Source: Lutraria lutraria (Eukaryota; Mollusca; Bivalvia; Venerida; Mactridae). Taken from it: 64,000 nucleotides of DNA. Within the stretch, counting starts at the first letter, position 1, and every line of letters starts with the position of its first letter. The position numbers and the translations under genes were made by a program. Where the stretch lies: NCBI GenBank assembly GCA_964023205.1, contig OZ026840.1:35505336-35569335 (forward strand). The letters run 5' to 3'. Shown here one piece after another: positions 31,801 to 61,294 of the stretch. The notes under the pieces were generated by a model, which ran no database searches, had not been told where the DNA came from, and saw only the letters and a list, made by a program, of their open reading frames with translations.

Positions 31801-32462
31801 AAAAACAATGGACTGGTATTGTTCACTTGGGGTGAAGACAATAATGATAAAGAAATGATCAGTAAACTGAAAAAATTAGAAGTGGATGCTATAATCTATG
31901 ATAGGTTTGTTAATGATATGTGTTCGTATTTATGAATCATTTTTATTAATTACACTGGAACTATGTTGGTTGGAACACTGGAACTATGTTGGTTGGATGT
32001 TCTTGGTAACTGATATCTGGTTTGGCAGTGTACTCGTATGTGTAGCAGTTTCCCCAATGTCCGGAACAAGTAAAAGTATTTATGTTGACCAAACACATTA
32101 ATGCCTTTATCAACAAACGTATAAGAAATATAAGATTTTGTAATTGTGTACAATCCGTTTCATAAACTTCATTTGTGTGCTATGTCACTTCATTTGATGA
32201 GTGTTTAAAATGTCCTACAAACGATTCATTGATAGTGCACTTAAACACATTTTCTACCTGTACCTTATCATTCAAATTGCTTGGAAATGCCATATGTACT
32301 GATACTCTGTGCGTATTTTGTATTGTTTGGCATTTATTATTACTTAATCATGTGCTTTAAATATTGGGCTTGGACTATGTTTTCAGAATCGACCAATTTA
32401 AAACCAGTGGCAACGAAAGCATCTTTAAGGTTGAAATGAATGAGAAAATCCATCAGTTTTAA
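19868..32462 (+). CDS. GPCPD1: Glycerophosphocholine phosphodiesterase GPCPD1/GDE5, complete, 17 coding exons
   Basis: Cytosolic enzyme that hydrolyses glycerophosphocholine to choline and glycerol-3-phosphate. Exons: 19868-20034, 20596-20762, 21800-21853, 22462-22613, 22926-22988, 24726-24836, 25269-25464, 26595-26737, 27506-27628, 28140-28232, 28550-28624, 29424-29448, 29687-29814, 30124-30251, 31160-31295, 31744-31904, 32387-32462. Total 1998 nt, 665 aa (human 672). Residues 1 to about 115 form a CBM20 starch-binding domain ('VCVTGDCQQLGSWDPHKVV'). The GDPD domain has HRG at 337-339, ENT at 380-382, ELD at 398-400, then 'KDKAVVVFHN' with H413; later 'GFNIEIKYP', 'RRIIFSSFD' and 'LVLFTWGEDN'. 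Human has HD where this has H413-N414. The exon 8/9 junction is the least certain: only donor 26737 with acceptor 27505 keeps the frame. ATG 19868 aligns with the family start. AATAAA at 32600-32605. Confidence 0.95.
20270..20365 (-). repeat. SINE fragment, minus strand
   Basis: Short piece with the family words 'caaattaactcacagcagtg', 'gataggctaggtgattact' and 'agaccataacgactg', in GPCPD1 intron 1. Confidence 0.45.
22089..22166. repeat. Hairpin: 30-bp inverted repeat with 18-bp loop
   Basis: Arms 22089-22118 and 22137-22166 pair at 27 of 30 positions (TCGAGGG...GTCGTAACT against its complement). It lies in GPCPD1 intron 3. It may be a minimal foldback/MITE or a structured RNA element; no target duplication is clear. 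Confidence 0.7.
22381..22449 (+). pseudogene. Partial relic copy of GPCPD1 exon 4 in intron 3
   Basis: Shares 'accttacatcttcatgataa' and the following 'CCAATCAAATT' with true exon 4 (22462-22613), plus the preceding 'tcc-gga-ggcttat' and 'acaaatcac' blocks, with small gaps. It sits immediately upstream of the genuine exon, has no usable frame, and looks like a small tandem duplication. The sequence just before it resembles SINE sequence near 63150, so its left edge is uncertain. Confidence 0.7.
22745..22920. repeat. 44-bp minisatellite, 4 units, abutting a splice acceptor
   Basis: The word 'ggacatt' recurs at 22757, 22801, 22845 and 22889, exactly 44 bases apart, with surrounding sequence 'tataaaatgttatatcatat' repeated. 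The last unit runs into the 3' splice site of GPCPD1 exon 5 (AG at 22924-22925). Confidence 0.9.
23072..23798. mobile_element. TTAA-flanked element with long terminal inverted repeats
   Basis: TTAA at 23068-23071 and 23799-23802 flank a 727-bp element whose ends (AGACGTTTTCGG...CCGAAAACGTCT) are inverted repeats of roughly 220 bp. They share, for example, 'gttcgctacatttttcacat' and 'gggcagataactca'. No ORF. TTAA duplications are typical of piggyBac- and Kolobok-type transposons. It lies in GPCPD1 intron 5. Confidence 0.88.
23935..24600. repeat. 32-bp minisatellite, about 20 units
   Basis: Unit GGTACTGACTGACTAAGGGA followed by CACTATACCATA, with two alternating variants ('accactggt' and 'accataggt') and degenerate edges. 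It lies in GPCPD1 intron 5, just downstream of the TTAA element. Confidence 0.93.
26895..27140 (+). repeat. tRNA-derived SINE with CTG microsatellite
   Basis: Head 'ggaccccgtggtttgaatgg', B-box-like 'gagttagaatccgacc', body 'attgttccatcttataagct', then (CTG)n at about 27100-27120 and 'tgttacaccctgg'. It lies in GPCPD1 intron 8. Confidence 0.6.
27935..28095 (+). repeat. SINE-like repeat behind a poly-G run
   Basis: A poly-G run near 27917-27930 precedes 'aggagggctctttgattgat', and a good B-box 'gagttcgaatcc' follows near 27989. It lies in GPCPD1 intron 9. Confidence 0.5.
30625..30745 (-). repeat. SINE fragment, minus strand
   Basis: Contains 'catctggtgactttaaacaa', 'aaccaccaaccttccgtaag' and 'ctaagtggacagcttcctca', words of the minus-strand SINE family. 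It lies in GPCPD1 intron 14. Confidence 0.6.
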
Positions 32463-33497
32463 AGATGAAGATCGACTTAGTTCAGATTAATTATATCAGC
32501 CATGAAATACAACTGTGTACATAGACTGGAGGTCTTTTGTACATACAAAGCCTTATAGGTCCAAATTTTTACAAATATACTGTATTTTGTACCCCTACTA
32601 ATAAAGCAACTAGGACATTTTGATTGACTCGTGTTCATTTACCCCTCTTTGTTTTGCATGTTAATGGGGTTAACCATTGTGTACCAATAGCTAGAGTCAT
32701 TCGGTAACTTTCCATCTTTAATGGTTGAGGAAGATCCCAGACGTACACTTGGATAGAATCTTCCATACATAAGCTGGAGAGCTTCCTCATTTGATTTGAA
32801 ATTTGAACAAACAGCGGCGAGGCACTCGTGATTACATGCCAGAGATCATAATTCCTGTGGTAAAGATGCATGTGGCATGGTGTTGATATACTGTAAAGAA
32901 ATATCGGACATAAAATGAAGACTTGAGAGCTGATTTATGCTGATTCAAAGCGCTTCTCATGAAGTGATGGACAAATGAAGATGTTTTACTACAAAACAAA
33001 TCAGAAACATTGGCCAAGGAATTGAGACCAACCGTGTCTATGGTAAAGTCATCACCTGATAAAACAATGAACAACGCGTTGTTCGTATTGCTTGGCTGTC
33101 TCAGCTATAGGAGAACCCAAAAATGTAATAATCTGTAATACTTGTATTTGATTAAGATTTTATTTTTGTTACAAGTGTATTGTATTGTATTAAGTTTGCA
33201 ATTAATGCTGAATGAAGAAATTTAATCTTTTGAACCAACCGAAGATTAGGCTTTCAGCGTTTTAGGTAGTTTATTTTAGATTCCCTTTGACGTAACGTAC
33301 ATTTTCAAGTCAAACTACCATGTGCATGTAGATTTAAAAATTCAGATAAATAGTCAGATTGCAAAACAAACGTTGATGTGGCTAAAATAACCTAATTTAC
33401 TTTTGTACATGTGTATGTAAATGAAACGAAAAAAAAACATTGAGCAAATTAGTTCATTGCATATTTGGTTTTTGTATATAATTCATACTATATCGGG
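32463..33497. other. GPCPD1 3' UTR and convergent spacer to EF-hand gene A
   Basis: GPCPD1 ends with AATAAA at 32600-32605. A minus-strand SINE (about 32655-32870) follows. EF-hand gene A converges from the other side, with a minus-strand AATAAA at 33270-33275. The whole spacer recurs, diverged, before gene B (39400-40117) and before gene C (48350-49408). Confidence 0.7.
32655..32870 (-). repeat. SINE shared by all three array units (copy A)
   Basis: Family words 'cattcggtaactttccatct', 'gaggaagatcccagacgtac' and 'ccatacataagctggagag'. Positional equivalents are at 39462-39680 and 48480-48640, so it was present before the tandem duplications. Confidence 0.65.
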
Positions 33498-36400
33498 CTA
33501 ACAATGTCCGTGTTCATGTGAGTTTCCGTGAGGATGTTGGGCAGCTTGGCCTTCAATTTTGGTAAAGAGCTGAAAATCAAAACAACAATATAATTATAAT
33601 AGCCAGAATCATACATGTGTAATTGTAGGTATATCTATTTATTTTGACAAGAACAATTATTGTTCAGCTTAGCATTATTATTATTTACTAATGTTCGAAT
33701 AAACCCACAGGTTTCAAAATTACAGTCGATATTAATTATATTAATAATAATTCTGCAGTTACTGTATCAAATCAGTATTGCGTGCTAGTGAGTGATCAAA
33801 ATAACATTGGAATGCTTTTCCGTCAAGTTCGCTGTTTCCGTTACTACCCATATGTTTTCCTCTCATTGGCATTGCCATACCAATAGCCATTTGCTGTTAA
33901 TTTTTCCTTCTAAAACTTTTAAGGTTTTGAGATTAAGGTTGAATATAGATAATACTACCGAATACAATAGCTACTTAGTAATTGAAAATCTGTGGTACGA
34001 AGTTTAATTAAATTTACAACATATATATATATATGATTTGTCGGACTTTACTAAATAAGTATAATATTATTTTCTGTATACTGAAACTGCATCAAATTCA
34101 CCAACGGCTAGTTTTTTAACTGTATATAGGGAAATAATAATTTGAAATTCGTATTTCATCATCATCACTTATGTAGTATTTAGTGTGAATGTATTGTACT
34201 TACAAGCACCCAATAATTAACAAATTCTTCTTGTGTAACGCCCATATCATCTAAAATATTAGAAAGACAAGCTATGGTTAATATCTTAGGCCATCTTATA
34301 ATGATTTATTGATTAGGGATATTCATAGTGGTCGACTAGACCAACATAATTATTTTACAAACAATTATCTAATATTCGTCAGGGTTTAAAGATGAAAATG
34401 TTTATTAAATTTACGTCATCATTTCTAAAATTGTAGCATTATTATAAAGCAGCAATTTTTAATAAAAAAAGGTCAGCCATGAGTTTCTATAATTACGCCT
34501 TTGCTCGTATATTGGCGAGTTTCGACAACCAATGAAAACCCCACATTTCATCATACCGAGTTTTATAATCCATAGGAATGCATGGAATCCCGTATTGCCG
34601 AGTTTTGTTTTAATTGGTCGACTTCTTGAGTGTATATGTGTCAGTTCATGGAACGGGAACCAGTTTAACACTCATGCGTTCTGAACATTTAGATGTTTGA
34701 TAGATGGTCGCTATTTGATTACGAGCGTCAGAGTGATTGAGATATCAAGTCTATAAACTATTCTGTGAACGTTTACGCAACTTTCTGCTATTATTGCTGG
34801 TGAGATAAAAAGAATCAGTAACCTTATCTGAGCAAATCTAATCAACGGCACATATCTGTTTTCAAACAAATTGTTTTAAATAGCCACTCTTGAAATCCAC
34901 TATTGATAGTAATGGATTTTAAAATGTGATATTGACTATATTATTTTCCGGCGCCCTTTAATGTTTAAAATCAATGGTTTTCTTGTATGACAATTTGAGT
35001 TCACTATTGATCCTGTGCTGTTACATACCAATTCTCAAATGCTCAACTACAAAGCAGTTGGTATCTCCAAAAGTGATGCATAAATTGCCAACGGATAGTG
35101 GGACAAAGTGAGAGTTGCAACCCCGTCTTCTATTAATCTTTAAAGTCATAGTTATGTCTATTTAAGGTCGATGGTAACTGAATAATGAGAACTTCCTGAA
35201 GATTTGATTAAGGACCGTTATTTATGAACTACTCACTATTTGCGTCCATTTTAGCGTGAAATGCTTCATAATCAGCTTTGTCCAAATGATGGTCACCATT
35301 AACATCATAATCATCGTACAAGTAGTGCGAGAGCATGTACATGCTTGGATTAGCGTCACACAACATCTGGGTGTATTCATGTCTGCTTTCACGGCCATCA
35401 TCTATCAATTACAACATTTATTTCAATTAAATAATTATAAATTAGTAAGATTTTGTACTTTGGAATTATTTTCCAGTACGGATCATCGCTCTTTTTTATG
35501 GGTAGAGTTGACATACACGTTAAAAGGTAAACTCATTACACCGACTATCAACATTTCTTACTCATTCTTCACCAAACTTGGTCTAACTGTTAATGGGCAT
35601 AATGTCTCAGTCAAGTTCGAAAACCAGCAAAGTCGCTCCTGGCACCCTTGAATAGTACCTGATTTAACGAGACGAGTACGAGACATACCTTTATTGTCCG
35701 CTCTCTTAATTAAGGAGCACCGATTATGTGATAGTCTGAAATCCTTTTTTCATAATCATCATCAATATTTTAGATAGATAATTAGGTTGTAACTTTAGAA
35801 ATAAGGACATACTATTTTTATCGTATTTGTCAAATACTGCATCAATCTCGGTCACAGTCATTACTCCATCTTGGTCAAGGTCCTCTGTGACGAACATTAT
35901 AGCAGCTGTGAGATTGTATGGCTGCACCGTTGACATATCTACAGCGAATGCGCTAAAAATAAAAACGACTTGTGTGAATTACATTGCAATAATATCATGA
36001 TTCAACGTGCTTTATGTTTTATAGTTTGTTTGTAAGCAAAACGAACGTAAATGTTTTTGTAGGTCGACTTGTGATAAAGACTAAAATATTTTTAGTGTGG
36101 TTTTTTCTCCTGCTTCGATAATACTGTGGAAGGTCATCTGCGTGCTTGATTACGCCAGTACAAATAAAGGACGAATAGACAAAAGATAACAACTCCAAGT
36201 GTTCGATGACTAATGTCACAACGAATCCAGTTTGGTGATTTTCTTAACCTTTTGTATAACAGTATGACCATGACACCATGTGCAGCATGACTGGCTACAT
36301 GATTTCCAGATTCCAAATGAGGAAAGCAACATACATGAAGGTGGATTGGGGGAGGGTTTGGGCAAAAATTGATGTTTGAACTTAATCTAAGCTATACAGT

Positions 36401-36710
36401 CAAAACACGCAAAGTTGAGCAAATAATATTTTTTGGACCAATCATATTCGTGTACAAAAATGTGATTTAATAACTAAATTAATTTATTTCTATGCTGTAT
36501 TATCAAAACACATTAATTCATATACATATATATTATTCGTGTTAACTAATGGTAGGACAAATCATTGGCGAATTAAAACATTTTGGTCAACTTTACGAGA
36601 GTTACAATGTACTTGGTTAAACGCAATGCAACATAAAAGTTTATATCTGACTGCTAAGTAACTTACCTGTTATATAGAGCACATAACGTAATTACTGTGA
36701 GGCCAATCAT
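33498..36710 (-). CDS. Secreted four-EF-hand protein with His-rich tail, paralogue A
   Basis: Coding exons in order: 36667-36710 (exon begins 36716), 35813-35952, 35237-35401, 34204-34250, 33498-33569; a non-coding first exon ends at 37811. This gives 468 nt and 155 aa. Residues 1-18 are a signal peptide (MIGLTVITLCALYNSAFA). N28-L-T is an N-glycosylation sequon. Four EF-hand loops: 39-50 DLDQDGVMTVTE, 59-70 DKNNDGRESRHE, 94-105 DVNGDHHLDKAD, 114-125 DANNDMGVTQEE. Loop 3 has His for Gly at position 6 and Asp at 12; loop 4 has Met at 6. The tail HPHGNSHEHGHC is His-rich and suggests binding of a second metal. Two Cys (76, 155) might pair. Likely a secreted calcium/metal-binding protein (extrapallial fluid, shell matrix or haemolymph are guesses). 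No named orthologue recognised. Confidence 0.9.
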
Positions 36711-36716
36711 CTTGAA

Positions 36717-37810
36717 CTGCGAATATAAATTTTGTGCATGTAGTTTTTATGTTATTCAACTCTGGAACAAACATTTTTTAATGCTGGTACTCAATAACTT
36801 TGCTTCCAACGAACAAACTTTTCAATTACAATTTGTAATTATCTTCCAATGTTCGTTTTACCTTGATATTTTTATGATCTAAATGTTTGTCCAAGGGAGA
36901 TGTCGACCATTGCAATGTTCGTATGTGGCGATGTCCCTATACAATGTAATGTTATCTGCCTAACGAAGTTTTTGACTATTTAGCTTATCACTACGACTGT
37001 TACTTTACAAGGCAATGAACTTCATTATATTATTCATTTTTTTATGAAGTGTACTCAGCGAAAACGAACGAAACGTTCTGCCTAGTCAATATTCGAAAAC
37101 GCATTGTCTTCTGACATTTTGTCTATTGCAAATCATTCAAATCCCTTATATACCCACATACCCTTATTTCATTAAATGAGAAGATGTATAAGGGTACCAC
37201 CCTTTGTTTTGGCGTAGCGTCAGCAATTATTTGAGTACTGAAAATAAATCTCATTTGGAGACCCTGTGGTTGAATGGTTATCGTTTCTGACTACATGTAG
37301 ATATCATAAGCTTTTCAACGCTGTGAATTTAAATCCCACTCGAACCCAAACAAATTTTGAATTCAATCATATATAGCTATTGCAGAACGGTAGTTCTACC
37401 AAGGTATACGCATTTTGGTCTCCCTCAACCGTTGAAATGAGAAAAATCGCAAAATGATCCTGGTTGTTGGTGCGGCGTTAAACTCAGCTAGAGAAAATTA
37501 CTCAGAAAAATAGAGACAGTTTATTATCGTAACAGTTTCTTATTTTTTCCATTCTTGGTTATTCGATTGTCTCAATATTAAGACAGTACAGTATTATACT
37601 GGATATCAATATCATTGAACAATTTTACGTCTAGATTGGAATTGTGCATACAAGTAGTCAGATCTCTCACTCTTTAATAGAAGAACGTTAATACAACTAG
37701 CGCCTTGGTCAGCGATGTTAATGGCGTTATACTTAAGTTTTAAAAATAAATAAAATTTATTTAACTCTGCTTCGTATAGTAATGATCTTAAACATTCAAA
37801 ACGAACTTAC
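36717..37810 (-). other. Intron 1 of EF-hand gene A, with SINE
   Basis: Separates the non-coding first exon from the start-codon exon. It contains a plus-strand SINE at about 37257-37495 ('accctgtggttgaatggtta' head, 'aaatcccactcg' B box, 'gtgcggcgttaaac' tail). SINE copies lie at matching places in gene B (42918-43145) and gene C (52198-52440). Confidence 0.7.
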
Positions 37811-37972
37811 CTCTAACAGTGAACTGCACTGAATAACAATCAGTTGTAAGGTTTAGTCCAATGCCTGATATTTCTTTTTATAGAAATAAATCGTGTTCGT
37901 TGATCAAAGTGGCCCGGTGTGTGTTCTTTGTGATGGAAAATTCAATTAATATGTATTATATCCCTTACGAGT
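37811..37972 (-). promoter_or_regulatory. TATA promoter and first exon of EF-hand gene A
   Basis: Minus-strand TATAAAAAG at 37874-37882 lies about 30 bases upstream of a likely start near 37845. The non-coding exon ends at the donor after 37811. A block continuing upstream to 37972 ('caaagtggcccgg', 'ttcaattaatatgtattata') is nearly identical in paralogue B and partly kept in C. Confidence 0.75.
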
Positions 37973-39154
37973 TACAAAAAGAACTAGGTTTGATGTTTTG
38001 TTTCTAAAAGTTCAATGTATCTTAGAAAATTGGTCTTGGTGGATAGATTGGATGTATTAGATGTGTATTCGATAATAGACCAATTTCGGGACCTGCATTA
38101 AATACTGAGGTGATCTCTGAAGGTCACATTTTAAACCTGTTTGAAAATAGACGTACATTACATTAGGTGATCTTAATATGGGAGAGATCGCTTAGTGAGG
38201 TAAACTGCTGAAGTTGTTGTCCGTGCATCTTTTGGAAGGACTTCCGTGGTTGAGCCTTGTATAATTTCACACGTGAAGAAGTTATCTTTACGGAAGGCCA
38301 GTGGTTATATCCAGGTCCACGCCTGATATTTACCTCCACTGTTGAAGCTGGAACAGTCGCTAAGTTAAACCCGACTGAAAAACAGCTTTTGGAGATGTTT
38401 CTAAACTCACAACTCACTGACAGTACCTCAAACGAGAAGTCACGATTGTATCATACGTTGTCTAAATAAGGTGGAAATGATTAGATAATAGGACTGTTAA
38501 TGTAAGAAATCTAACTAAAGTTCACGGATGATAAGGAAAACTGGAATACTTATAATATGATAATTTTTTATAAAGACCGTATAACATTAGATAGTCAGAT
38601 TAATTTCAGACAATGCTTTGTTCCCTGTAATGATCGTTCATCCGCTTGTTGATGAAAACATCATCAGTTCTCATTCATTTATAGTTAAGTGCTCAAAAAT
38701 GGAAATAAAGATGATACAATTTGGTAGTCATTGTTCACTTATGGTAATACTTGATCAATCACTGGGAGAGGCAAACCGACCTTCGTTTTGATAGCACCAA
38801 TTATCTTTGCAAGTCACTAAAATGCAAATGGTCAGTCAGTAATCTATTGTAGAAAAAAACACGCAATTGCTTAGGATAGAAACAAATAGAACGCACTGTT
38901 TATTACTATTATTAATGTATGCATACGGCAATAAAAAATAATAAATAGAATGTTCAAAGTTAAATATAATTGCATCAGATGTGTTTCCTTTGCCTGGGCT
39001 GGTCTGTTGCACACAATACCAAGGGCAGTAACAACAAAGTTAAGGTCACACTTGAAGGTCAAAGGTCAACTATGGGCTCGGTGACATTCACTCGTCTGTG
39101 TCAAAGCGGCGTGTGTGGTTATTCGTCACGTTTGTGACAACCTCTAGCTATTGC
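37973..39154. other. Upstream region of EF-hand gene A
   Basis: Contains more sequence conserved with gene B upstream DNA (for example 'gtattcgataatagaccaa' near 38065 and 43896) and a SINE remnant near 38215-38470 that recurs at 43990-44270 and 53850-54110. No gene seen. Confidence 0.55.
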
Positions 39155-39300
39155 TGATTGTGCATTTTGGTGATGTTTGGCATTTATTAATACTTTGTCA
39201 TTAAATAATGGACTTAAATTATATTATCAGAAATGATCAGTGGCAACAAATAAGGTTGAATCTACCAATTTCAAAGATCACGTTCGAATTAGTTCTTCTG
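39155..39300 (+). pseudogene. Relic of GPCPD1 intron 16 end and exon 17 (unit B)
   Basis: 'gtttggcatttattaatact' near 39176 matches the GPCPD1 intron at 32327, and an acceptor-like 'attatcag' ends at 39230. After it come 'atcagtggcaac' and 'aaggttgaa', as in true exon 17, but deletions remove the frame and stop. Downstream 'atacaactgtgtaca' and 'tttacaaatatactgtattt' match the GPCPD1 3' UTR; its AATAAA has become AACAAA. Confidence 0.85.
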
Positions 39301-39461
39301 ATTATTTTAATATGACATACAACTGTGTACACTTACTGGAGGTCATTTATAGGTCCAATATTTTACAAATATACTGTATTTTTGTGCCCGTACTAACAAA
39401 GTAACTAGGACATTTTGATTCACCCGTGTTCATTTACCCCTCTGTATTTACATGTTACTGG

Positions 39462-39680
39462 GGTTTACCATTGCACCAACACCTATAGTCATTTGGTGAC
39501 TTTCCTGCTTTAATGTTTAAGGAAGATCCTAGACGTACATCTGGATAGAACCATCGACCTTCCATAATTAGCTTGGTAGCTTATTCGCATGTGAAATATG
39601 GTTCAGGATGGAATCTGAACTCATAATGGCGAGGGACTAGTGATTACCTGTCAGTGACCATAACCACTATTGTAACTTTA
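39462..39680 (-). repeat. SINE shared by all three array units (copy B)
   Basis: 'gtcatttggtgactttcctg' and 'gaaccatcgaccttccataa', at the same place relative to the EF-hand gene as the copy at 32655-32870. Confidence 0.65.
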
Positions 39681-40117
39681 GATGTCAAATCAGAAGATCG
39701 GCCATGAAATTGAGTACAGCCTAATCTACTGTAAAGTTATCATTTAATAAAACAATGAAAGATGTCTTGTTCGTATCTTGAAAAGTGTTGCTTGTCGAGA
39801 TTCCACATATTTGATTTTGAAGTTTTATTATAGTTATTTCATTTAAATTGCAAATACTGATTCACAAATGCTAGTCGTTTAGGGTTTAAGTGTTTGTGGG
39901 TTTGTATAGATTCCATTTGACATACATTTTGTCAAACTATCAATTACAAAAAGTCAGATGAATACATTTGTAGACAGTTTGCAAAACAAAATATAATGTG
40001 GTGAATATAACCAAAAGCATTTTTGTACATGTGTATGTAAACGAAGCGAAAGATACCATTGTGCGAATTAGTTTATTGCTTATTTGGCTTTTTGTATGTA
40101 ATTCATACTATATCGGG

Positions 40118-42425
40118 CTAACAATGTCCGTGTTCATGTGAGTTTCCGTGAGGATGTTGTGCAGCTTGGCCTTCAATGTTGACAAAGAGCTGAAAATCAA
40201 AACAATATGCAATAGTCAGTAACTTGAAATATGTAACTTCCGGTACATGTATATCATTCTATTTAATTCGATGAACATTTATATTTAATGTTAATGTCGT
40301 CCTTAACATTCTTACTGTTTACTTCTGTTGGACTAAACTCTACACAGTTTTATCATTATGTTATAAATTTCAGTCGACATATAAGAACAACTCTGCAGTC
40401 TCTTATCAGTGCTTGGAATGCTTAAAAATGTTGGATATTGGTATTTCTACTGATCACAATATGTCACTTATTAGTGAACGTAAATCTGTGATAAAACAAC
40501 TACATGTACATCTGTACTGGTATAAGATTTTCATCATAAGTATGACATTATTTCCTGTGTGCAGAAACTGCATCAACTTCAGCTAGTTTTTTTACCTTAT
40601 TTGGGAAAGAGTAATTTCATATTTATCATCACTTATTTAGTAATTAGTACTTAAGTATTGTACTTACAGCCTCCCAATAATTAACAAATTCGTCCTGTGT
40701 TACACCTCCATCATCTAAAATGTTTGAAAAACAAGCAAATGAATTCCTTGGGATATCGTAAGATTTGATATTCCTCGGAAACGACATTTAAAGTTATTTG
40801 TGTCAGTTCACATTAAACCACTGCTCATGCACTGTTACAGACCGATACCTAAATGATCAGCTGCAAGTCCAATGCAATTGGCATCTTCAAAAACGATGTG
40901 TAGATTACCAACAGGATGAGATACAAAGCGGCAGATGTTACCCTTTCTTATACTGATCTTCATATTCATTGTTATGTTTATTTTAAGTCATCTTTACAAT
41001 AACTGAATAATGAGGAGTGCCTGAAGAGATGAGTAATCCCATTAGGACTGTAGATTATGGATATGAAAAACGTCTTGAACTACTCACTATCTGCGTCCAT
41101 TTTAGCATGAAATGCTTCATAATCAGTTTTTTCCAAATGATGGTCACCATTGACATCATAATCATCGTACAAGTAGTGCGAGAGCATGTACATGCTTGGA
41201 TTAGCAGCACACAACATCTGGGTGTATTCCTTTCTGCTTTCACGGCCATCACCTATCAGTTACGACATTAATTTTAATTGAACTACATTGTACATGTATT
41301 ACAATTGAGTTGGCTTATTCATTTCCACGTTTATTGGCATAATATAACAGCCAAGTTTAAAAACCAGCAAACTCGCTCCTGCCACCATTGAATGGTACCT
41401 GATTCAGCAAAAAGTACAAGACAGGCCTTTATTGTTCGGTCTCCAAGTTGATCAGTTCCTATCCTTTCGTCCTGAGATAAATTTGCCGACAAATTAAGTG
41501 ATAGTCTGGCATCCGTATTTCATTTTAGGAGTCTAATTAGGACGTGGCATTAGAAATAGGGACATACCGTTTGAATCGTATTTATCAAATACAGCATCAA
41601 TCTCAGCCACAGTCATTATTCCATCTTGGTCAAGGTCTTCTGAGGCAAACATGACAGCAGCTGTGAGATTGTATGGCTGCACCATGGACATATCTAAAGC
41701 AAAAGCGCTGGTAAATGAAAAGAAAACGTGTGAATATTATACATGTAATGCAATATTAGCGTAATGCAATGTGCTTTGTATTTTTTAGTTTGTTTATTAG
41801 CGATACGAATTTTATGTTTTTGTAGGTCGCCTGGGGAATGCTAGAAGCGTAATCTTTGCTGTTTAACTTTTTTATTTTATCGCACGTTGATGTACTTGTA
41901 AATGTAAATTTTGTCTGCAGTTTGACTCTGCAAAGAATGACGTTTGCTCTTTGAATCTTGGTATAAAGAGAGATGACAGTGAGAGAGCAGATGAAAATAA
42001 CCATAACTCTTTTGTATGTGATTTCTTTATATATTTTCTTTTATGAATCCTCTAAACAAACAAATATTTACACAAAGAAATGTTGGTAACACCGTTTTGA
42101 AGAATAAAACGATCATATAAACATGCAATTAAAAAATGTATGTACATACATGTACAGTATTTTGATAAAACATTGTATAATCGTTTCCTTAAGTACTACA
42201 AAAACTTATGAAATAAAGGGATATTTCGTGTCAACACATCAATTGAACACTACATATCTTTAATTGTTTTAACCCGATTTGGCTGTAAAGACAAAGAGAC
42301 AACATTGCTAAATGGCGTTTGGGTTATAGAAATGACATGCCATATAAATGAGATCTGTTGTTCAACATCTGACTGACTTACCTGCTATATAGAGCACACA
42401 ACGTTATTACTGTGAGGACAATCAT
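40118..42425 (-). CDS. Secreted four-EF-hand protein with His-rich tail, paralogue B
   Basis: Same structure as paralogue A: coding exons 42382-42425 (exon begins 42431), 41568-41707, 41088-41252, 40668-40714, 40118-40189; non-coding first exon ends at 43641. It has 468 nt and 155 aa. Signal peptide MIVLTVITLCALYSSAFA and sequon NLT at 28-30. Loops: DLDQDGIMTVAE, DSNGDGRESRKE, DVNGDHHLEKTD, DADNDGGVTQDE. Loop 4 has regained Gly at position 6 relative to A. The tail HPHGNSHEHGHC is identical to A. Both Cys are kept. All splice sites are intact and no frame damage is seen, so the gene looks functional. It belongs to a tandem array, all on the minus strand. Function as for A; expression is unknown. 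Confidence 0.9.
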
Positions 42426-42917
42426 CTTGATCTGCAAGTAGGTTTGTGCATGAATTTTTTATGTCATTCAACACAAGAAGATACGGTTTTATTTTTGTTT
42501 GAGGTATTTATAGCATTGCTTCAGTTGTAATTCGTTTTCGACTTACGTATCTAACCTTGGTCTTTTGGTCTAAATGTTTAACAAAGGGAGATCTCAACCA
42601 TTATAATGTGCCACTTGAGTGATCTCTAGTTACAATGTACGAAGGCTTGGAATATTTGGCTTATCACTACAAATGTTACTTCACATGACAAAGGTTTTCA
42701 TTATACAATATATCAACTTTTTAAAAAATATACTGAACGAAAATGAACGAAAAGTTTGAGCTAATTAATATTCAAGAAGGCATTGACTTCTGACACTCTG
42801 CATGCTTTATATCAGTCGCTGGGAGACACTTTCATTAAATGGGAAGCTCTATAAAAGCACTACCTTTTGTTTTAGCGTCAGCATTTTTTGAATACTGAAA
42901 AATCTGATTTGAACACT

Positions 42918-43145: not shown

Positions 43146-43235
43146 AAAGAAAGCAAAACAGAAAAAAAACAAAGGCCGATCATTTCCAGAATTGATTCAT
43201 ATTTCTTTCTATTGATTCTGCGAATAATGTCTTAA

Positions 43236-43570: not shown

Positions 43571-43640
43571 TTAAAAATAAATAAGATTAATTCAACTCTA
43601 CTTCATATAGTAATGATCTTAAAAACCAATTCGAACTTAC

Positions 43641-51684: not shown

Positions 51685-52197
51685 CTTGATCTGCGAATAT
51701 AAATTTTGTTCATGTACTTTTTATGTCATTTAGCTCAGGAAGAAAACGGTTTTATCGTCTGAGTACTCGATAGCATTGCTTCCATCGATCATATCTTTCA
51801 ATTGTAATTTGTAATTATTTTCGCTTAACCAAAATAACCTTGTTCTTTGGTCTAAATATTCAACCAAGAGAGATATTAATCATCACAATGCACAGCTAAC
51901 TGCTTAACGAGGTTTTAACATATTTGGCTTATCACTACAACTGTTACTTCACAGAACAAATATTTTGCATTTTGTTTTTTTATGCAAGTCGTTTTGAAAT
52001 GCACTCAAACAAAAAGTTCTACCTAGTCATCCAACATTTTATTTATTGAAAAAAAACGTTTGAAAAAAGTTCCTTATGTTCCTGCAGGTTAAATGGGCTG
52101 TTTTTTATATGGCCATTATCCTTTGTCACCAATTATTTGAATACTGTAATTTTTCGTTTGGATACCAATTCAATATTAGGATCGCCTCGTACAAAGA

Positions 52198-52440
52198 CGG
52201 CAAGGTACACCATGGTTGAGTGGTTATGTTCTCATACTGGTGGTCATTAGCGAATCCCTGCTGTGAATTCAAATCCCACTCGGGACCTGACACATTTTAA
52301 ATGTTAGAAAACTATCCAGCTAGTTGATGACAGATCGGTGATTCTACTCAGTTTTACGCTCTGGGTTTTCTTCCACCTTGAAAGCTAGAATAGTCGCCAT
52401 AAACCCAGGCTATTAGTGCAACATTAAACCCAGTGAAAGG
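52198..52440 (+). repeat. SINE in intron 1 of gene C
   Basis: A-box-like 'tggttgagtggttatg', B-box-like 'attcaaatcccac', tail 'gtgcaacattaaacccag'. Positional equivalent of the copies in genes A and B. Confidence 0.65.
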
Positions 52441-52449
52441 AAATGTTAA

Positions 52450-52858
52450 AGCCCCATTAGCTTTTTGGATGTTAATATTAAAGTAGGTCTTATTTTACAC
52501 AGAAAGATGTCTTATCAGTGAAATTGACTTTAACTTTCAATAAAAACATTCCGAAATGTTCTTATTTAATCACAAATATAGCACAGTATTTTTTTCAATA
52601 ATATTGCAAACAAATAAGAAAATTAAAGTAGGTCTTATTTTACACAGAAAGATGTCTTATCAGTGAAATTGACTTTAACTTTCAATAAAAACATAAATGT
52701 AGCGCAGTATTTTTTTCAATGATATTGCAAAAAATAAGAAAAAACATTTAACAGCATTTGTATGTGATGTGGCTAGAGCGAATGAAATACATTTCTTATA
52801 TTTTACAATCATTTTATCTATTGTTCTGTATTACTAAATTCAAAACGCTAATGGGACT
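52450..52858. mobile_element. TTAA-flanked MITE (AGCCCCATTAGC family), copy 2
   Basis: TTAA at 52446-52449 and 52859-52862; ends AGCCCCATTAGC...GCTAATGGGACT; 409 bp. An internal segment of roughly 140 bp starting 'attaaagtaggtcttatttt' is tandemly duplicated, which explains the extra length over copy 1. It lies in intron 1 of gene C. Confidence 0.88.
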
Positions 52859-53047
52859 TTAAGAAAACATTGCATTTAATTTCGATTTAGACAAGAGTAA
52901 AATGGCTCGCCGTTAGATCTCTCATGTCATAATAAAAGAACGTTAACTACAAATAGCGTTTGGACCAGTGATGACAACACAGAAATAATTGAAATGATTC
53001 TGCTATATTTCATGAAGTGGCGATCTTAAAAGACAAAACGAACTTAC

Positions 53048-53191
53048 CTCTTAGAGCGAGCTGCACTGAATAACAATCAGTTGTAAGATTTAGTACAATC
53101 TCTGATATTTCTTTATATAGAAACAGATCGTGTTCGTTGATTAAAGTGGCCCGTTGTGTGTGCTTTCAGATGGAAAATTCAAATATTAATT
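53048..53191 (-). promoter_or_regulatory. TATA promoter and first exon of EF-hand gene C
   Basis: Minus-strand TATATAAAG at 53111-53119. Non-coding exon with donor after 53048. Upstream 'aaagtggcccg' and 'gatggaaaattcaa' are kept from the A/B promoter block, but the rest has diverged. Confidence 0.7.
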
Positions 53192-54502
53192 AGCCGTATG
53201 CCAATGAGATCAAGTTTTGATGTCAGTTTGTTATATTAATTTTCACCGTATTATGGAGAAAACGTTCTTAAATATTGATGTATACTTGATATGTAAAAAA
53301 TACAAATTCAGTAAATAGAGCTTAGCTTTTAATACAGTATTTAGTTGAAGAATGCATATATCAGGCCTTATTGTGTTTGTTAAGTTGGTTTGTTTGTGGC
53401 TAGCCCCGTTCGGCAACAGAGTACGTATCAGCAATGTATTGCTGTCGTTATCTGTGCCCCTTTTGTAGGCGTAAACATATGTTTGTTTCTGGTTTTCCCG
53501 ACCTACCCTTATTATTGCCCACACTAATCTAGACGTTTAATTCAATTCGAGGTACGAAACAGCCACTACATTGTATTTCAATAGTTCAACTATTGCGCAT
53601 GCTTTCATGAACCAACAATGACCATGTAACAAGAAACGAACATGTAAATATGCAGTGTAAACCTACCGTTAAAAGTTATATGAATGACCAACTCGGTGAC
53701 TGAAGTGGTCTCAATATGAGTTTGAAAGTTAATAATACATTTGTATATGAGACAAATGCCATAGAAAAGATACCCATTAAGGTTATTATAATATTATTAG
53801 TTTATCTTGATACTGAAGTGATCGCTAAATGAGGTTTAATTGCCAATGTTGTGTCCTTACGTCTTTCGGAAAGGGCATCATGGTAGAGTGGTTATGGTAT
53901 CTGACTAGTCAATACCAGTTCCTTACAACTGAGTGTGAATCACATCTAGGATCGATTCTCACAAGTGATGAAGCTGTTCAGCTAGCTTATAGAGGATCAG
54001 TGGATCCACTGCTAAGGCTGGAAAAATTGCGTATGGACCCTTGTTATATGTGCGATGATAAATATTGGATAAGTCTCTAAACTCATCACACAGTCACACA
54101 CAGTCAGTACCTCAAACAAGAAGTCATGGTTTTATCATATTATGTCTCTCGACAGAAAGTAAATGATGATAAGACCGTAATGTAAGAAATCATGATAAAA
54201 TTCACGGACGTAATAGTAAGCAGGAATGTTTATATACTATGATGTAAGACCGTTATTTAAGTTAGTCAGATTAAAATCAGTCAATGATTTGTATGATGAC
54301 TAACTCCCCTGTTCTTTCATCTGTTCGTTGATGAAGCATCGTTACATCGGTACATGTAACATTCGTCTATGTAAATATTGTGCCACTTCGATCTAGTCTC
54401 ATTCCAAACGCTCGTTACTATTTGACATGAATTGCGTCAACGTAGATTTGAATCATCTTGCATTAACGATTCACCATTACATGTACTAGCATATCACACT
54501 TG
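53192..54502. other. Upstream region of EF-hand gene C
   Basis: No gene seen. Includes a repeat piece near 53470-53530 ('tgtttgtttctggttttccc', 'gacctaccc') also found near 17040 and, inverted, near 20890. A SINE (about 53850-54110) and sequence matching unit B intergenic DNA follow. Confidence 0.5.
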
Positions 54503-54914: not shown

Positions 54915-56499
54915 TTATATTACATTTTGTAGGCATAATTTACATTTTCTGTTAATTCTTTCAATACCGGTAAATCTTCTTAATTCAATCTCTAATTTGT
55001 AGCTTGATAATCTTATTGATGTTAAATATCTTCTCAATTCATTATTTGATACTATTTGTAAGTATTCTTCAAAACAGAATGTATTTTTGTATTGGCAGTA
55101 GTATTCTAGTTTGGGCGAGCTAGTAATCGAGGCAGACCAATCTTGAATATATTGTTCTTTAATTCTATTAATCAACAACGGTTCATGATTAATAGTTTCA
55201 TCAAAATTATCTTTTATATATGTAAAGCCTAAATGGTCTTTAATAGAGTTAATACGACTAGCCCAACATGGAGTGTTTACGTTATAACAAAGATCGTGGT
55301 ATACATTATAAAGTGGTGAATCAACGTTCTTCATTATTTTCAACCAGAATTTTAATGACTTTATTCTACATAGAACTGATAACGGAAATCTCCCTAATTC
55401 ACCATATACGGCGGAGTTCGGAGTTTGTGATTTAACACCAAGTAATTTAAAAAAAAATTTAATATGTAATTTATCAATATCTTTTGGATTGTAGATACCC
55501 CAAATCTCAGAACCGTATAAAAGAGTAGGTACTATCATTGTATCAAATAAGTGTAATTTCGTTTTTATGTCCAATGGTACCTTATCAAACAACGTCAAAA
55601 GATTATGATATGCTCGTAAAGCTTGGTCCTGGAGAGATTTCACAGCTGAATTAAAGTTACCTGTATATGAAAATTTAACACCTAGGTATGTAAAACTATC
55701 TACAATTTCCAACGGTTCACCATTTATATAAAATATAATATTATGAAGTTGTTTGCGTTTTTCGAATATACATATTTTGGTTTTATCCAGATTTATAGTG
55801 AGACCCCATTTCAAAGAATATTGATAAATACAGTCGATTTGCGATTGGAGACTTACAGGATCAGTTGTAAAGAGAACAATATCGTCGGCAAAAAGAATCA
55901 TATACATGGAAAGTAGATCTAAATCTTTATCTGTTAAGAGGTTAAAATCTATACTATTTTTCAATGTCATTTATGAATAGGATGAACAAGAGTGGCGATA
56001 GTGGTTCCCCTTGTTTCAAACCAATTGTTACGTCAAAAAAGTCCGAAAGAGGCATACTGTTTGATATCTTAATACAAGATTGTACTCGGTCGTAAATACA
56101 TTTCATCATGTTAATCATTTTACAGTTTATTCCAGATGCAATCAATTTTTCCCATAATGCTTCACGATTTACGGTATCAAATGCTCTTTTGTAGTCGATA
56201 AATATACAATATAACTTAGAGTGTTTAGCTAAAATCTTTTGAATGACAGCATGAAGTAAGAAAATAGCATCCGTTGTTGAACGGTTATCTCGGAAACCAA
56301 ATTGAAAAACATTAAAAACCTGTTCAGACTCACACCATTTGTTTATGCGATTTCTTAAAAGGAGAGAGAAAATTTTCTCCATAGTATTTACAAGTGTGAT
56401 GCCCCGATAATTAGATGGGTTATTTTTATCACCCTTTTTATACCCCCGAGTAACCAGTTTCCGTGAGGTTAAGGAAACATCGAGCGCGCTCAAGAACAA
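54915..56499 (-). pseudogene. LINE reverse transcriptase, frameshifted
   Basis: Frame 56499-55954 has 'YKKGDKNNPSNYRGITLVN' (truncated at its 5' end by an insertion), 'FGFRDNRSTTDAIF', 'FIDYKRAFDTVNREALW' and 'GLKQGEPLSPLLFILFINDI'. A run of A residues near 55965 shifts the frame, and the protein continues in 55970-54915 with the catalytic 'MILFADDIVLF', 'WGLTINLDKTKICIF' and 'YLGVKFSYTG'. These are motifs A, B, C and following of a non-LTR reverse transcriptase. The end 'RINRKCKLCLQNVI' is zinc-knuckle-like. Residues before motif 1 lie across the insertion, upstream of 57480. Confidence 0.92.
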
Positions 56500-57480
56500 T
56501 ATTGTTTCTCACAAACTTTAAAAACTACGTATCAATAACACAACTTAACACGTATAACCTCGCATATGTTTTAAACATATCCTTCATTGCTAACTCATGG
56601 ACGCATCCATTTTCATACATGTACAAAATGAGACTTCCATTAAGTATGGTAGAACAGTTTTCGTGAGGTTTAGCGAAATGGCTGAATTAAACAAAATTGG
56701 CCATATATAGAACAAGAGATATCATTTAACGTGTAGTTTTATGTATTTAAAGGTTTATTTTAGATCCGTTTTTAAATTTTATGGTTTATTTTATCTTTTA
56801 TTTCGGTATCAACAGTTATAGCCTATATCATTGACATTCGTTAGAATTGTTGGTGAATATTGCCTGTCTGCATTTTGCTGGATGCGGGCTAGATCTAGAT
56901 CTAGTACCATATATTTCTAAATTTATATGCCAGATTTAGGTTTAATGTGGCTCGCACATTCTTATGATGTGTATCGGGGAATATATATATTTTTTTATTG
57001 ACAATTTATTGTATTTCGGTCAATAAACTACATGGTGACTGTTTTTAACAAGTGACAAAACATTACATTTAGGTGTCTCCAACCATATAAGTAGGTAACC
57101 TTTCCTTCCATTTCGTAATTTAAATATCAGCCACGGAACCAGTCATCCAAGGTCATGACGTAACTGTAAATGGTGTAAACAATCGGCTGCTAAACAGATT
57201 TTAAGAGAAAGATCGTTATATTTTGAAAAATTAATGTAAGATGTAGGTTTACTAATTGAATTATATTTTTTACATGCTTTTATCATAGTATATGAAGGGA
57301 AACTATTTTCTTATGTTTCCAAGAGCTATTCGAAGCATTTTTTATTGCCGACTGCGGTTTGTCGTCTCTGCAGTTGGCTTCCAGGGTATGACGTCATTCA
57401 ACAAATTATAGCGCGAGCTTTTTGTAAATATTTCCGGTATAACGAAAACGAAGGTATCACGATTTAGGGTTACTCGACGG
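56443..57480. mobile_element. 1.04-kb TA-flanked insertion in the LINE
   Basis: TA at 56441-56442 and 57481-57482 flank it. Removing the segment with one TA joins the LINE frames from '...GVIVQIY' straight into 'KKGDKNN', which defines both edges. Its ends share an imperfect inverted CGAGTAACC (left CCCCCGAGTAACC, right GGTTACTCGACGG). No ORF. Probably a non-autonomous Tc1/mariner-like element. Confidence 0.75.
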
Positions 57481-57839
57481 TATATTTGTACTATAACACC
57501 TTTGGTCCACGCCTCTGGATATATACACGTATTAAAAATATGGTTAAAAATCGAACATAGATAAGGAGAAATAAATGTGTTTGAGTCAATATAAAAGTCG
57601 GCTACATTATTGTCAAAATCACAACTCTTGTTTCGTTTTAATTGAGAAATAGTTCGTTGAACCTCTTCAACAGTTATACATGTATCTAATTGTTCAATAT
57701 CAACGGAGTTGTTACATTCTGTATTATAATAATCAGCCGTTGACTCATCTGTATTATTATAAACGTTCGAAAAATGCGTGACGAAATTTTGCAAATCAAC
57801 ATCGTTGCTTTTATTCCCTGTATTTCTAAATTTATTCAA
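57342..57839 (-). pseudogene. LINE linker between endonuclease and reverse transcriptase
   Basis: LINE-derived from 57839 to about 57481, with 'VEEVQRTISQLKRNKSCDFD' and 'IFNHIFNTCIYPEAWTKGVI'; the last 'RRVTLNRD...' part is the inserted element read through. It is in a different frame from the endonuclease segment, which ends at a stop near 57920. Confidence 0.85.
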
Positions 57840-57919
57840 GTATTTCCAGAATTTCCGTGAAGATGAATTATGTAGCTTTGATATATTTATTTTCTCTTTA
57901 GTGTAAAATTTCTGCTTTG

Positions 57920-59150
57920 CTAGTCTTTAGCATATTTCCTATGTTTATTTAAAAAATCGATTTTGTTTGTATCAGATTTGCATGACAAGTATTTTCGTTT
58001 TGAATCAAGGAAGGACTTTTTATTTCGCCGACATTCATCATTGAACCATATTGATTTTCTCACTTTACTTTTTGGCTTATTGGTAAAAGTCTTACCGAAA
58101 CATTTATAAGATAAATCATATACAGCATCAGAAAACGTATCAATACATTGATTAATATCTATTAATCCAGACGACAGATTATTTGCTATGTCATCCAACA
58201 AACTTTTCTTAGAATGTAGCATGTCTATAAAATTGTCAGTATCAGATGTATTCCAAACTATCTTATCAAAAGATTGGAAGTTATCCATTGAAGCACTAAG
58301 TGTACAATTTAAAGTAAATGCAACTGGGCAATGATCTGAAAACTCGGTTAAATCTAGGACACTCATGCTTAATACTGTATCGAAGTTGTTAACATCAGTT
58401 ATTAAATAATCAACAGCACTTTTTACAGGCCTATGTCTATACATAGAATGATAAGTACAGTTACCGTTTTCTAAACGGCCATTCACAATAACAAGATTAT
58501 TTTCTTTACAAAGGTTAAGTAAATTAGAGCCGAAGTTGTTTAAACCAGTATCATAGTTTTTACGTGTAGCTAAAGACGAAGCATTAATATTATTCAATGG
58601 TAAATCAACATAACGACCCGGATTAATGTCAGGCACGTAGTCAAGATGATCACTAGTACGTGAGTTCAAATCACCATATAAATACACAAAACCCTTTTCA
58701 CTGTATTTACGTATCTCATTGTTTAAACACTCGAAAAATTCAAACTGAAAAAAGTGACGAGTTGGGATTACGGTACGCAGCTGAATCTTCCGGGGGGATA
58801 TAACATAAACATATATAACTTTCTCTCTCAACGTTACAGACAATTTCATTAAATTTCAACCATAATATGCCTTTATCATTTACACTAACTAGTTCAATAT
58901 GATCTGAATAACAACGTTTATAGTATACAATAACACCGCCACTATTTCTCTTTGATTTTTTGTTATATTTTGGTCTTGGGCAGTTAAAACAGTCATTACC
59001 ATCAGTACGAATATCCGTTACATTTGAGTTCCAAGTTTCTGTTAGCAAAATAAGGTCATAATCCGAGATAAAGTTTATAAAGTCACAATCATTCAATTTG
59101 GCTTTGATACCCTGAACATTCCAGAGTAAAAAATAGACCATGATGAGCAA
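57920..59150 (-). pseudogene. LINE EEP-type endonuclease, frameshifted
   Basis: Frame 59150-58740 has 'LLWNVQGIKAKLND', 'LILLTETW' and 'GGVIVYYK', as in AP-endonuclease-like LINE nucleases. A T-run near 58750 shifts the frame, and the domain continues in 58849-57920 with 'YLYGDLNSRTSDHLDYV', 'YLITDVNNFD' and the catalytic SDHCPVAF. Putative catalytic residues (N, E, D, N, SDH) are present, so loss of function comes from the frame damage. Confidence 0.9.
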
Positions 59151-59256: not shown

Positions 59257-59399
59257 GTCACCGAGACAATTGGGTGAAGAAATTGCGTACAGACACATTT
59301 TTTTCTCTACCCTTGTTCATCATACATTTCGAGAATTTGATATTTGACATCTGGAGATCAAGGTCCAAACTTGTTAAGAATACTGGTTCTGTTTGACGA

Positions 59400-61294
59400 T
59401 TAGATTGAAGACATTACTCGTATGTCTAAATTAAGTCAATCTCCCTTCATCGATGATTACTAACATGCAGCGAACTAGTTTAACTAGTATTGGTACAGAG
59501 TTTTAGATCATGGGTTAGGATTAATGCCCATCAGTACCGTATCGAAATATAATTTATTTATTCATTTATTATTATTTATATTTTAACTATTTCTAAAACA
59601 TGGTACATAGGAAATATATTACACAAAATGGGCATATAAAGTTACAGTGTTCAAACAAACAAACAATATTACTGAATATACAAATTGAGACTGTAAAATT
59701 ATTAAAGGTAAATAATATCAGTAAAAAATTGAAACCATGTCAAAAACGTTAAAATACAAGGATAACACAAAAAAGGAAGTAAATCCTTATTTCCATTGTG
59801 GTCCTTTATAAAATTATATGTAAATAACCAAGAAAACAACAACAAATTACATTAATACGAAAATAAAATACAAATTTATCTTAGAGATAATTATTATCAC
59901 AGAATAAAATTACTATCACAGAATTTACATCATTATCTAAGAAATTATTGATATTTAAAATGTGTATAAAAAACAACTTCAAACACTAGCAAGCAGATGG
60001 GCTTGGACGGTGGACTTAAACTGAGGGAGGTTCTTAACTTCTCTTATATGCTGTGGCATTTCATTCCAGAGGGAGCAACCTTGACTAAATTAAAGCACGA
60101 CTGAACCCGTAGATAATAAAAAAAAGATATTAGAAGGTTAGGGTCTGAAAGATATCGCTCTCGACGGACGACAGCAAGCAAATAAAACCGTATGAAAATA
60201 CTGGGTATATTTAAAACGCAACGAGTCGCTTTTCTTAGTTGAAATTATTCATTACGTTGTGTTAATTCAAACCTAACGTTCTGTTCTGTCTGTGTATTTG
60301 TATGTACATTTATAACAATGTTTGTTAATTTCACCTAATATGCCTATTTTGTGAATAAACTGAACTGAACTGTTATTATGTAATTCGGTTTGTGTTCAAT
60401 AATCAATTGAGGAACTAGTGGGGACTGGCATACATGTATTAGAATAACATTTTCACAAACACTAAAGCTTGATAAATTTATTCAATTATCTATGCTAAGT
60501 AAAAGGGCTTAATTCATTTTGAGTTGAAGTCATACTATGAGTGAACGTTACTTATGCATACAAAGAGCACTGGACAAGTTCATAGGTCTAGATGAAATGG
60601 GGAACTTAAGATAAGTTGGTCAATCTAGGTCACATAGTTTTACAACTCTTTAGGTGAATATTATACATGCTGTTAAGTTTATGGACATACATGGACATAC
60701 AGTTTTAACCAGTAACATGTATACAATCCTTACCACCACCTAAAGGTAATTAAGACTCGCGGATCAAAATATTCAATGTTTACGCATTTATTAATTAATG
60801 TTACTGATTTATAAACGTATTCGTTTGATATTATGTTTATCTTTTTATAGGAAAATCAGCGTTTATATCTATAGAAGTTTGGAACTGAATGAAAATTGTT
60901 TTATGAGTCGAATGCAAAAGGTTTTTATTAAGTTTCATTTTCCAGCATCAAGGGGTTTCCATTTTTAGGACTCGTGTACGATTCGAGTTTAATCACCGTT
61001 GTGATGTACGAATTGTTATTTTAATTATATTATAAACTCAGTAGAACCCTCAACATTAAGTACAAAGTTTGAACCAAATAAATCGTTCTTAACGTTACTA
61101 TGGACACGATAAAGATGGTAAAAGGAGTTACTTATGATTCATTATGTAGGCTAGGGTCAGTTGAAAAAAAGCAAGCTAAATCACAAGATTGAACCAGAAC
61201 TATTTTGATAAAACTGAGAAAAGATTCCGGTGACAATATATGTAATGAACAATTTGCTCTTTTTCGCGACAAGAAAGTTCGAGGTAGGAACAAA
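59400..61294. other. Intergenic region before the SLC16-like gene
   Basis: Contains a second LINE tail (59979-60110), a plus-strand LINE-like 3' end near 60270-60375 ('gaataaactgaactgaactg'), and at about 60450-60950 sequence matching 47815-48200, the end of array unit B. No other gene seen. Confidence 0.55.
59979..60068 (-). pseudogene. C-terminal end of a second non-LTR retrotransposon
   Basis: The minus strand encodes WNEMPQHIREVKNLPQFK followed by STVQAHLLASV and a stop. This is the typical 'WNxLPxxIRxxxxxxxFK' C-terminus of CR1/Jockey-like reverse transcriptases. Upstream sequence to about 60110 is degraded; the 3' tail probably extends towards 59550. It is a different lineage from the LINE at 54503-59160. 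Confidence 0.7.

What the first reader, a model, noticed from the sequence alone, without database searches (positions are those of the whole stretch)
32297..60950. Tandem EF-hand array whose units begin inside the neighbouring GPCPD1 gene
Each of the three EF-hand units is preceded by the same sequence: the end of GPCPD1 intron 16 plus exon 17. The real one is at 32297-32462; relics lie at 39155-39300 and 48237-48327, at different stages of decay. The original duplication therefore started within the last GPCPD1 intron and carried that exon along. It gives a clear polarity (A next to the parent gene) and a way to date the copies.
Basis: seen in the sequence. Interest (0 to 1): 0.85.

Follow-up and report, generated by a model that had tools for sequence, protein, structure and literature searches.

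The report
Tripled clam calcium-protein gene, hitchhiking exon
In this clam-like genome a gene for a probably secreted calcium-binding protein was copied twice in tandem, and each copied stretch began inside the neighbouring lipid-enzyme gene, so two decaying copies of that neighbour's last exon were left behind; a neat but ordinary record of gene duplication.

Summary
Three tandem units (A 32281-38656, B 39149-44390 plus 45588-45656, C 48220-54467) each carry one intact EF-hand gene on the minus strand. Each begins with the tail of the last GPCPD1 intron. B keeps part of the last GPCPD1 exon (32 of 75 coding bases lost, frame broken) and its 3'UTR. C keeps the intron tail and splice acceptor, followed by a dispersed repeat. 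Both relics rank first among 618 stretches tested.

The interpretation (duplication starting in that intron, A parental) is supported. A new test agrees: exon+UTR diverges between A and B at 0.51 of the rate of other noncoding DNA (95% 0.34-0.70), as expected if only B decays. Amendments: two duplications are needed, C probably first; unit C ends near 54.5 kb, and 54.9-59.2 kb is retrotransposon; exon numbers 16/17 are not confirmed; no absolute date.

The proteins resemble SMP5-type mollusc shell proteins in loop spacing. Within their subfamily, copies of Mactra, Mercenaria, Mya and this species group by species. This is a new instance of a known process. A predicted nested EF-hand pairing is the more unusual by-product.

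The parts
19868..32462 (+). GPCPD1 (glycerophosphocholine phosphodiesterase), about 15 coding exons found; CBM20 + GDPD domains
   Evidence: tblastn with Mercenaria P0122 and Dreissena P0121, ORF pieces; Pfam GDPD 7.2e-44 and CBM_20 2.2e-10 on a rough exon-joined model
31906..32387 (+). last GPCPD1 intron; the detectable left edges of B and C fall at about 32293 and 32281 in it
32388..32462 (+). last GPCPD1 coding exon, 24 aa and stop
   Evidence: sequence; same-frame match to the P0122 and P0121 C-termini, weak alone (E 0.20 and 0.06) but in order and in frame after the preceding exon
32281..38656 (.). unit A (adjacent to intact GPCPD1)
39149..45656 (.). unit B: 39149-44390 homology to A, then unrelated sequence, then 45588-45656 homologous to C
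48220..54467 (.). unit C
39149..39300 (+). B relic: GPCPD1 intron tail, acceptor AG ending at 39230, broken last exon
   Evidence: deletions of 11, 8 and 13 bases in the 75-base coding part
48220..48327 (+). C relic: GPCPD1 intron tail and acceptor AG at 48317-48318 with a few exon bases
48353..48422 (.). dispersed repeat arm (several genomic copies lie as close inverted pairs) inside the C relic
   Evidence: 48 matches listed in the own genome, itself included; a lower bound
33498..36710 (-). EF-hand gene A coding exons 36667-36710, 35813-35952, 35237-35401, 34204-34250, 33498-33569; 155 aa
   Evidence: exons called by eye from splice sites, phase and alignment
40118..42425 (-). EF-hand gene B coding exons 42382-42425, 41568-41707, 41088-41252, 40668-40714, 40118-40189; 155 aa
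   Evidence: exons called by eye from splice sites, phase and alignment
49409..51684 (-). EF-hand gene C coding exons 51641-51684, 50950-51089, 50338-50502, 49927-49973, 49409-49489; 158 aa
   Evidence: exons called by eye from splice sites, phase and alignment
37812..37960 (-). probable promoter (TATA-like box seen by eye) and 5'UTR exon of gene A (equivalents within 43600-43790 in B and 53020-53200 in C)
   Evidence: 0.81-0.89 identity between copies
54915..59150 (-). broken non-LTR-type retrotransposon to the right of unit C, not part of it
   Evidence: ORFs; RVT_1 in two of the three ORFs scanned

Best explanation
Two successive tandem DNA duplications copied an EF-hand gene that lies tail-to-tail with GPCPD1. 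Each event broke inside the last GPCPD1 intron on the left and upstream of the EF-hand promoter on the right, so a promoterless last GPCPD1 exon was carried along as a passenger. The first event gave C; the second gave A and B. The copy next to GPCPD1 (A) keeps the working exon. In B and C the passenger exon is free of selection and decays by deletions (B) or by loss with a repeat insertion (C). All three EF-hand reading frames stay intact, so the likely gain was more, or more varied, secreted calcium-binding protein. Shown: the units, relics, intact frames and one-sided decay. Favoured by the counts: C older than A/B. Inferred: the DNA-level mechanism, the benefit, secretion and any shell role.
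For: Collinear diagonals with introns, promoter and exon 1 included, so not retrocopies. Relics beat chance, and 32297-32700 matches only A and B genome-wide at E <= 0.001. One-sided decay: A-B divergence of last exon+UTR 0.193 against 0.382 in other noncoding DNA, ratio 0.51 (0.34-0.70); 0 of 142 overlapping equal-sized noncoding windows are as low, the lowest being 0.194. Order: three-way columns outside EF-hand coding exons favour A+B 1001, A+C 474, B+C 402; in the 8 of 12 parts where A and C align at 0.55 identity or more, 551, 368, 316; in coding exons 45, 25, 15 (sums). Right edges: B's right flank matches C at 45567-45680 with 54381-54486 (0 of 500 shuffles as high), where A shows no signal (289 of 500), as expected if A is the proximal copy cut off at a new junction. 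Frames intact; dN/dS point estimates 0.31, 0.48, 0.35 (not tested against 1). The window trio is one branch (94/92), sister to the Mactra pair (89/91).
Against: Junctions are not preserved: the A-B spacer (38657-39148) shows no significant match to the B-C spacer (450 of 500 shuffles as high) or to the intron left of B's edge (139 of 500), so breakpoints are not seen at base level. A wider stretch of C's right flank (to 54900) gives A a borderline score (21 of 500), so A's right edge is not sharp. The low A-B divergence runs past the poly(A) site (0.82 identity to 32782), so a conversion tract or longer UTR is not excluded. Intron 2, left out of the neutral set, gives mixed signals (AB 72, AC 100, BC 72). 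Part of the A-C noncoding alignment is at 0.36-0.46 identity, near what unrelated DNA gives, which inflates the A+B count. Support for A+B in the protein tree is weak (89/73). No outgroup locus was read.
Confidence: 0.87

Rival explanations
1. One duplication, then unequal crossing-over or gene conversion between copies produced or homogenised B; the left edges of B and C nearly coincide because they are the same original junction.
For: Detectable left edges of B and C lie only about 12 bases apart in intron coordinates (32293 and 32281). Synonymous divergence (0.26-0.41) is below noncoding divergence (0.41-0.70). Copies group within species in the subfamily.
Against: B is A-like from near its left end (0.82 with A against 0.41-0.44 between B and C in 32426-32782), so a crossover would have to fall at the extreme edge. 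A and B differ in their right flank relative to C. The spacers share no detectable junction sequence.
Confidence: 0.2
2. The relic exons are not decaying passengers but are spliced to GPCPD1 as alternative last exons.
For: An AG acceptor is retained in B (39229-39230) and C (48317-48318).
Against: Frame-breaking deletions in B; in C little but the acceptor region is recognisable. B diverges as if unconstrained. No RNA data here.
Confidence: 0.04
3. Chance resemblance or a dispersed repeat shared by the three places.
For: The region contains repeats.
Against: Top-ranked of 618 stretches, collinear with about 6 kb of further homology; 32297-32700 has only two places in the genome at E <= 0.001.
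Confidence: 0.01

Closest known systems
DNA-mediated tandem duplication with a partial copy of a gene (complete/partial/chimeric duplicates; PMC3449122, passages seen)
   Same: A breakpoint inside an intron yields a truncated, structurally incomplete gene copy
   Different: Here the partial copy is only a neighbour's last exon, present twice at two stages of decay next to its intact parent, with a measurable one-sided decay rate
SMP5 / secreted EF-hand shell matrix protein (Haliotis discus hannai Hdh-SMP5, PMC10741955, abstract and passages seen)
   Same: Short protein with EF-hand loops reported at 36-48, 56-68 and 112-124 in Hdh-SMP5 against starts at 39, 59, 94 and 114 here: the same 20-residue spacing of the first two
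   Different: 155-158 aa with four loops and a His-rich tail (Hdh-SMP5: 134 aa, three loops); three tandem copies; no expression or shell data here; direct sequence comparison with Hdh-SMP5 was not made
Uncharacterised bivalve homologues (Mactra antiquata P0001/P0003, Mercenaria P0002/P0006, Ruditapes P0005, Mya P0007/P0008, Dreissena P0009)
   Same: 59-74% identical over 94-100% of the length
   Different: Two proteins on contigs of equal length were found in Mactra, Mercenaria and Mya, grouping within species; their gene neighbourhoods were not seen

Membership tests
Tandem duplication carrying a partial neighbour gene | Head-to-tail repeats with introns and flanks, not intronless | tested here: met
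Tandem duplication carrying a partial neighbour gene | The partial neighbour copy is truncated within the gene, while the intact gene lies at one end of the array | tested here: met
Tandem duplication carrying a partial neighbour gene | Breakpoint junctions visible at base level | tested here: inconclusive
   spacers replaced or diverged; genome search on the repeat content of the A-B spacer did not complete
EF-hand superfamily | EF-hand profile match above the curated cut-off | tested here: met
   PF00036 31.3, 35.3 and 32.4 bits against a cut-off of 25.4 in 3 of 3 copies
SMP5-type secreted EF-hand shell protein | Signal peptide | not tested
   hydrophobic N-terminus seen by eye; no signal-peptide predictor was run
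SMP5-type secreted EF-hand shell protein | Loop spacing of 20 residues | tested here: met
   conserved ligand columns D39/E50, D59/E70, D94/D105, D114/E125 against 36, 56, 112 in Hdh-SMP5
SMP5-type secreted EF-hand shell protein | Mantle expression or presence in shell | not testable with these tools
   no expression or proteome data for this species
GPCPD1 | CBM20 plus GDPD domains | tested here: met
   tree with bivalve GPCPD1

The most novel reading that the evidence does not exclude
The last GPCPD1 intron may be a recurrent duplication breakpoint: two separate events of different age have detectable left edges about 12 bases apart, while the same EF-hand gene seems to have multiplied independently in at least four bivalve lineages. 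The gene's product may also pair its calcium loops in a nested way (loop 1 with 4 outside, loop 2 with 3 inside, sharing helices), which would make it an unusual EF-hand architecture.
Probability: 0.15. Interest if true: 0.5.

Novelty: new member of a known kind. Interest (0 to 1): 0.27.

Why it matters
A passenger exon that is constrained in one place and free in the others is a built-in control: it gives the polarity of an array and a relative neutral clock without an outgroup. The half-rate result (0.51) fits that idea. For bivalve biology it places an SMP5-like EF-hand gene among genes that seem to multiply repeatedly by lineage. As a mechanism it is ordinary.

Tried and rejected
Same left edge as proof of one shared junction: extension of the C edge further left (to 32209) was not significant (164 of 1000 shuffles reach it) and the spacers show no common junction, so it was kept only as a rival. 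Fourth copy nearby: tblastn with P0001 and P0014 at E <= 0.05 over 70 kb left and 110 kb right of the window gave none. A GPCPD1-like piece 5.9 kb right of the window (E 0.006 in 20 kb) did not pass E 0.05 in the larger set and is taken as chance. Rfam: 0 matches at gathering score; ARAGORN: 0 genes. No Mactra GPCPD1 is among the 120 of 157 listed. In Mya and Dreissena the GPCPD1 of the window's own clade is on another contig and in Sinanodonta the locus tags are 416 apart, so adjacency is not shown to be old. Mactra1 as orthologue of C alone or of A+B: rejected by AU test (p 0.0027 and 0.0021); Mactra1 with all three is not rejected (0.0706). Whole-fold relatives: Foldseek gave none at E <= 0.001. 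Papers: GPCPD1 + EF-hand + mollusc gave 0; six locus numbers gave 0; wording for neighbour fragments gave 0; listings were scanned only. PMC8902148 (passages) lists an EF-hand gene among Mercenaria extrapallial-fluid genes, which I could not link to these proteins.
Full report
What is there. The window lies in a 728.5-Mb genome of 71 contigs (C9:35505336-35569335). The closest protein is from the clam Mactra antiquata. From left to right: GPCPD1 on the plus strand, three EF-hand units, a broken retrotransposon, and on the plus strand an ORF with an MFS transporter match.

The repeats. Self-BLAST gives one collinear chain for each pair of units: A 32281-38656, B 39149-44390 with a detached piece at 45588-45656, and C 48220-54467. 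The match includes introns, promoter, 5'UTR exon and intergenic DNA, so these are DNA-level tandem copies. EF-hand exon 4 has three places in the genome at E <= 0.001, all in this array. No further copy was found in 70 kb to the left and 110 kb to the right; a whole-genome protein search did not complete.

The EF-hand genes. They are on the minus strand, tail-to-tail with GPCPD1. Each has five coding exons with matching phases and an open frame: A 155, B 155, C 158 aa (exons placed by eye). All three match PF00036 above its cut-off. dN/dS point estimates are about 0.31 (AB), 0.48 (AC) and 0.35 (BC), from dN 0.080/0.135/0.144 and dS 0.260/0.280/0.405 (NG86); no test against 1 was run. A hydrophobic N-terminus and a His-rich C-terminus are seen in the sequence.

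The passenger exon. The left end of every unit is the tail of the last GPCPD1 intron. In A the last exon (32388-32462) encodes an end that resembles Mercenaria and Dreissena GPCPD1 (E 0.20 and 0.06 for this short exon alone, in frame and order after the preceding exon). In B the exon aligns with deletions of 11, 8 and 13 bases (32 of 75 coding bases), while the 3'UTR is 0.84 identical. In C about 71 bases of intron tail and the acceptor remain recognisable; a repeat arm with 48 listed matches in the genome, itself included, follows. Chance is excluded by shuffles and by a scan of 618 stretches.

A test of the relic idea. If A's exon and UTR are held by selection and B's copy is free, their divergence should be half that of DNA free in both. 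It is 0.193 (0.131-0.269, 183 columns) against 0.382 (0.355-0.414, 3018 columns), ratio 0.51 (0.34-0.70); 0 of 142 overlapping equal-sized windows of the other noncoding DNA are as low, the lowest being 0.194. The comparison set leaves out intron 2, the EF-hand 3'UTR and the promoter. The low-divergence stretch runs on to about 32782, so a longer UTR or a later conversion tract is possible.

Order of events. Noncoding K2P distances on a forced three-way alignment are AB 0.41, AC 0.67, BC 0.70. Three-way columns in the 12 parts outside EF-hand coding exons favour A+B 1001, A+C 474, B+C 402. In the 8 of these where A and C align at 0.55 identity or more they are 551, 368, 316. In coding exons they are 45, 25, 15 (my sums). 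Intron 2 departs from this (72, 100, 72); B is only 0.51 identical to A there. B's right flank matches C's at 45567-45680 with 54381-54486 (0 of 500 shuffles as high); A's right flank does not (289 of 500), though a wider stretch is borderline (21 of 500). That fits a tandem duplication with A the proximal copy cut off at the new junction and B the distal copy keeping the older flank. So C is probably the older product and A/B the younger pair. Left edges: B at about 32293; C at about 32281, with further extension not significant. The near-coincidence is unexplained; an alternative is a shared junction kept through unequal exchange.

Relatives. The first search gave 11 proteins: 8 named, all from bivalves, and 3 unnamed. 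The profile search gave 587 at E <= 0.001, of which 120 were listed, running from molluscs into proteins of bacterial or unnamed origin. In a 24-row tree, for which I picked 21 of the listed proteins, the window copies form one branch (94/92), sister (89/91) to the two Mactra copies (97/91); within the same subfamily the pairs of Mercenaria (97/90) and Mya (100/97) also group within species. Mercenaria and Dreissena in addition carry members of a second, older subfamily on other contigs, so not every copy in a species groups together. Either each lineage duplicated on its own or copies are homogenised; the data here do not decide. In an 8-row GPCPD1 tree the relatives form two clades; the window gene belongs to one with Mercenaria P0122, Mya P0126 and Dreissena P0121 (100/100). 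Of 8 named species with both relatives listed, 6 show equal contig lengths for them, but partly with the other GPCPD1 clade, so adjacency is not shown to be old.

Known kinds. Partial copies of genes made by duplication breakpoints are well described (PMC3449122, passages seen). The protein resembles abalone SMP5 in size and loop spacing (PMC10741955, abstract and passages); I did not have its sequence. A search for GPCPD1, EF-hand and mollusc together gave no paper.

Checking. The claim on species grouping was narrowed to the subfamily, the site counts were also given for the better-aligned parts, the right-edge test was rerun, and the confidence was lowered from 0.88 to 0.87 for the borderline signal there.

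Verdict. Observation confirmed, interpretation supported with amendments; an ordinary process with unusually clean fossils.

Noticed in passing
EF-hand proteins A, B, C (33498-51684); model of P0001: Loop spacing 20-35-20 and an inferred nested pairing (loop 1 with 4, loop 2 with 3, shared helices); no PDB match by Foldseek at E <= 0.001.
   Followed up: partly
43230-43574 and 52446-52864: The same repeat sits in opposite orientation at roughly matching places in the first introns of B and C.
   Followed up: no
   Followed up: partly
23930-24580: 32-bp minisatellite, about 20 copies, inside a GPCPD1 intron; also a 44-bp array at 22741-22918 and an 18-bp array at 2839-3157.
   Followed up: no
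P0001, P0003 (Mactra antiquata): Both EF-hand proteins carry the database name 'ATP-dependent DNA helicase Q4', which looks like a misannotation.
   Followed up: no
GPCPD1, 19868-32462: Belongs to one of two GPCPD1 clades of bivalves, with the longest end branch of the 8 rows (0.62; rough model); no further GPCPD1 was found within 70 kb left or 110 kb right of the window.
   Followed up: partly
48353-48422: Arm of a repeat that occurs elsewhere in the genome as close inverted pairs (such as C4:43818648-43818800), MITE-like.
   Followed up: no
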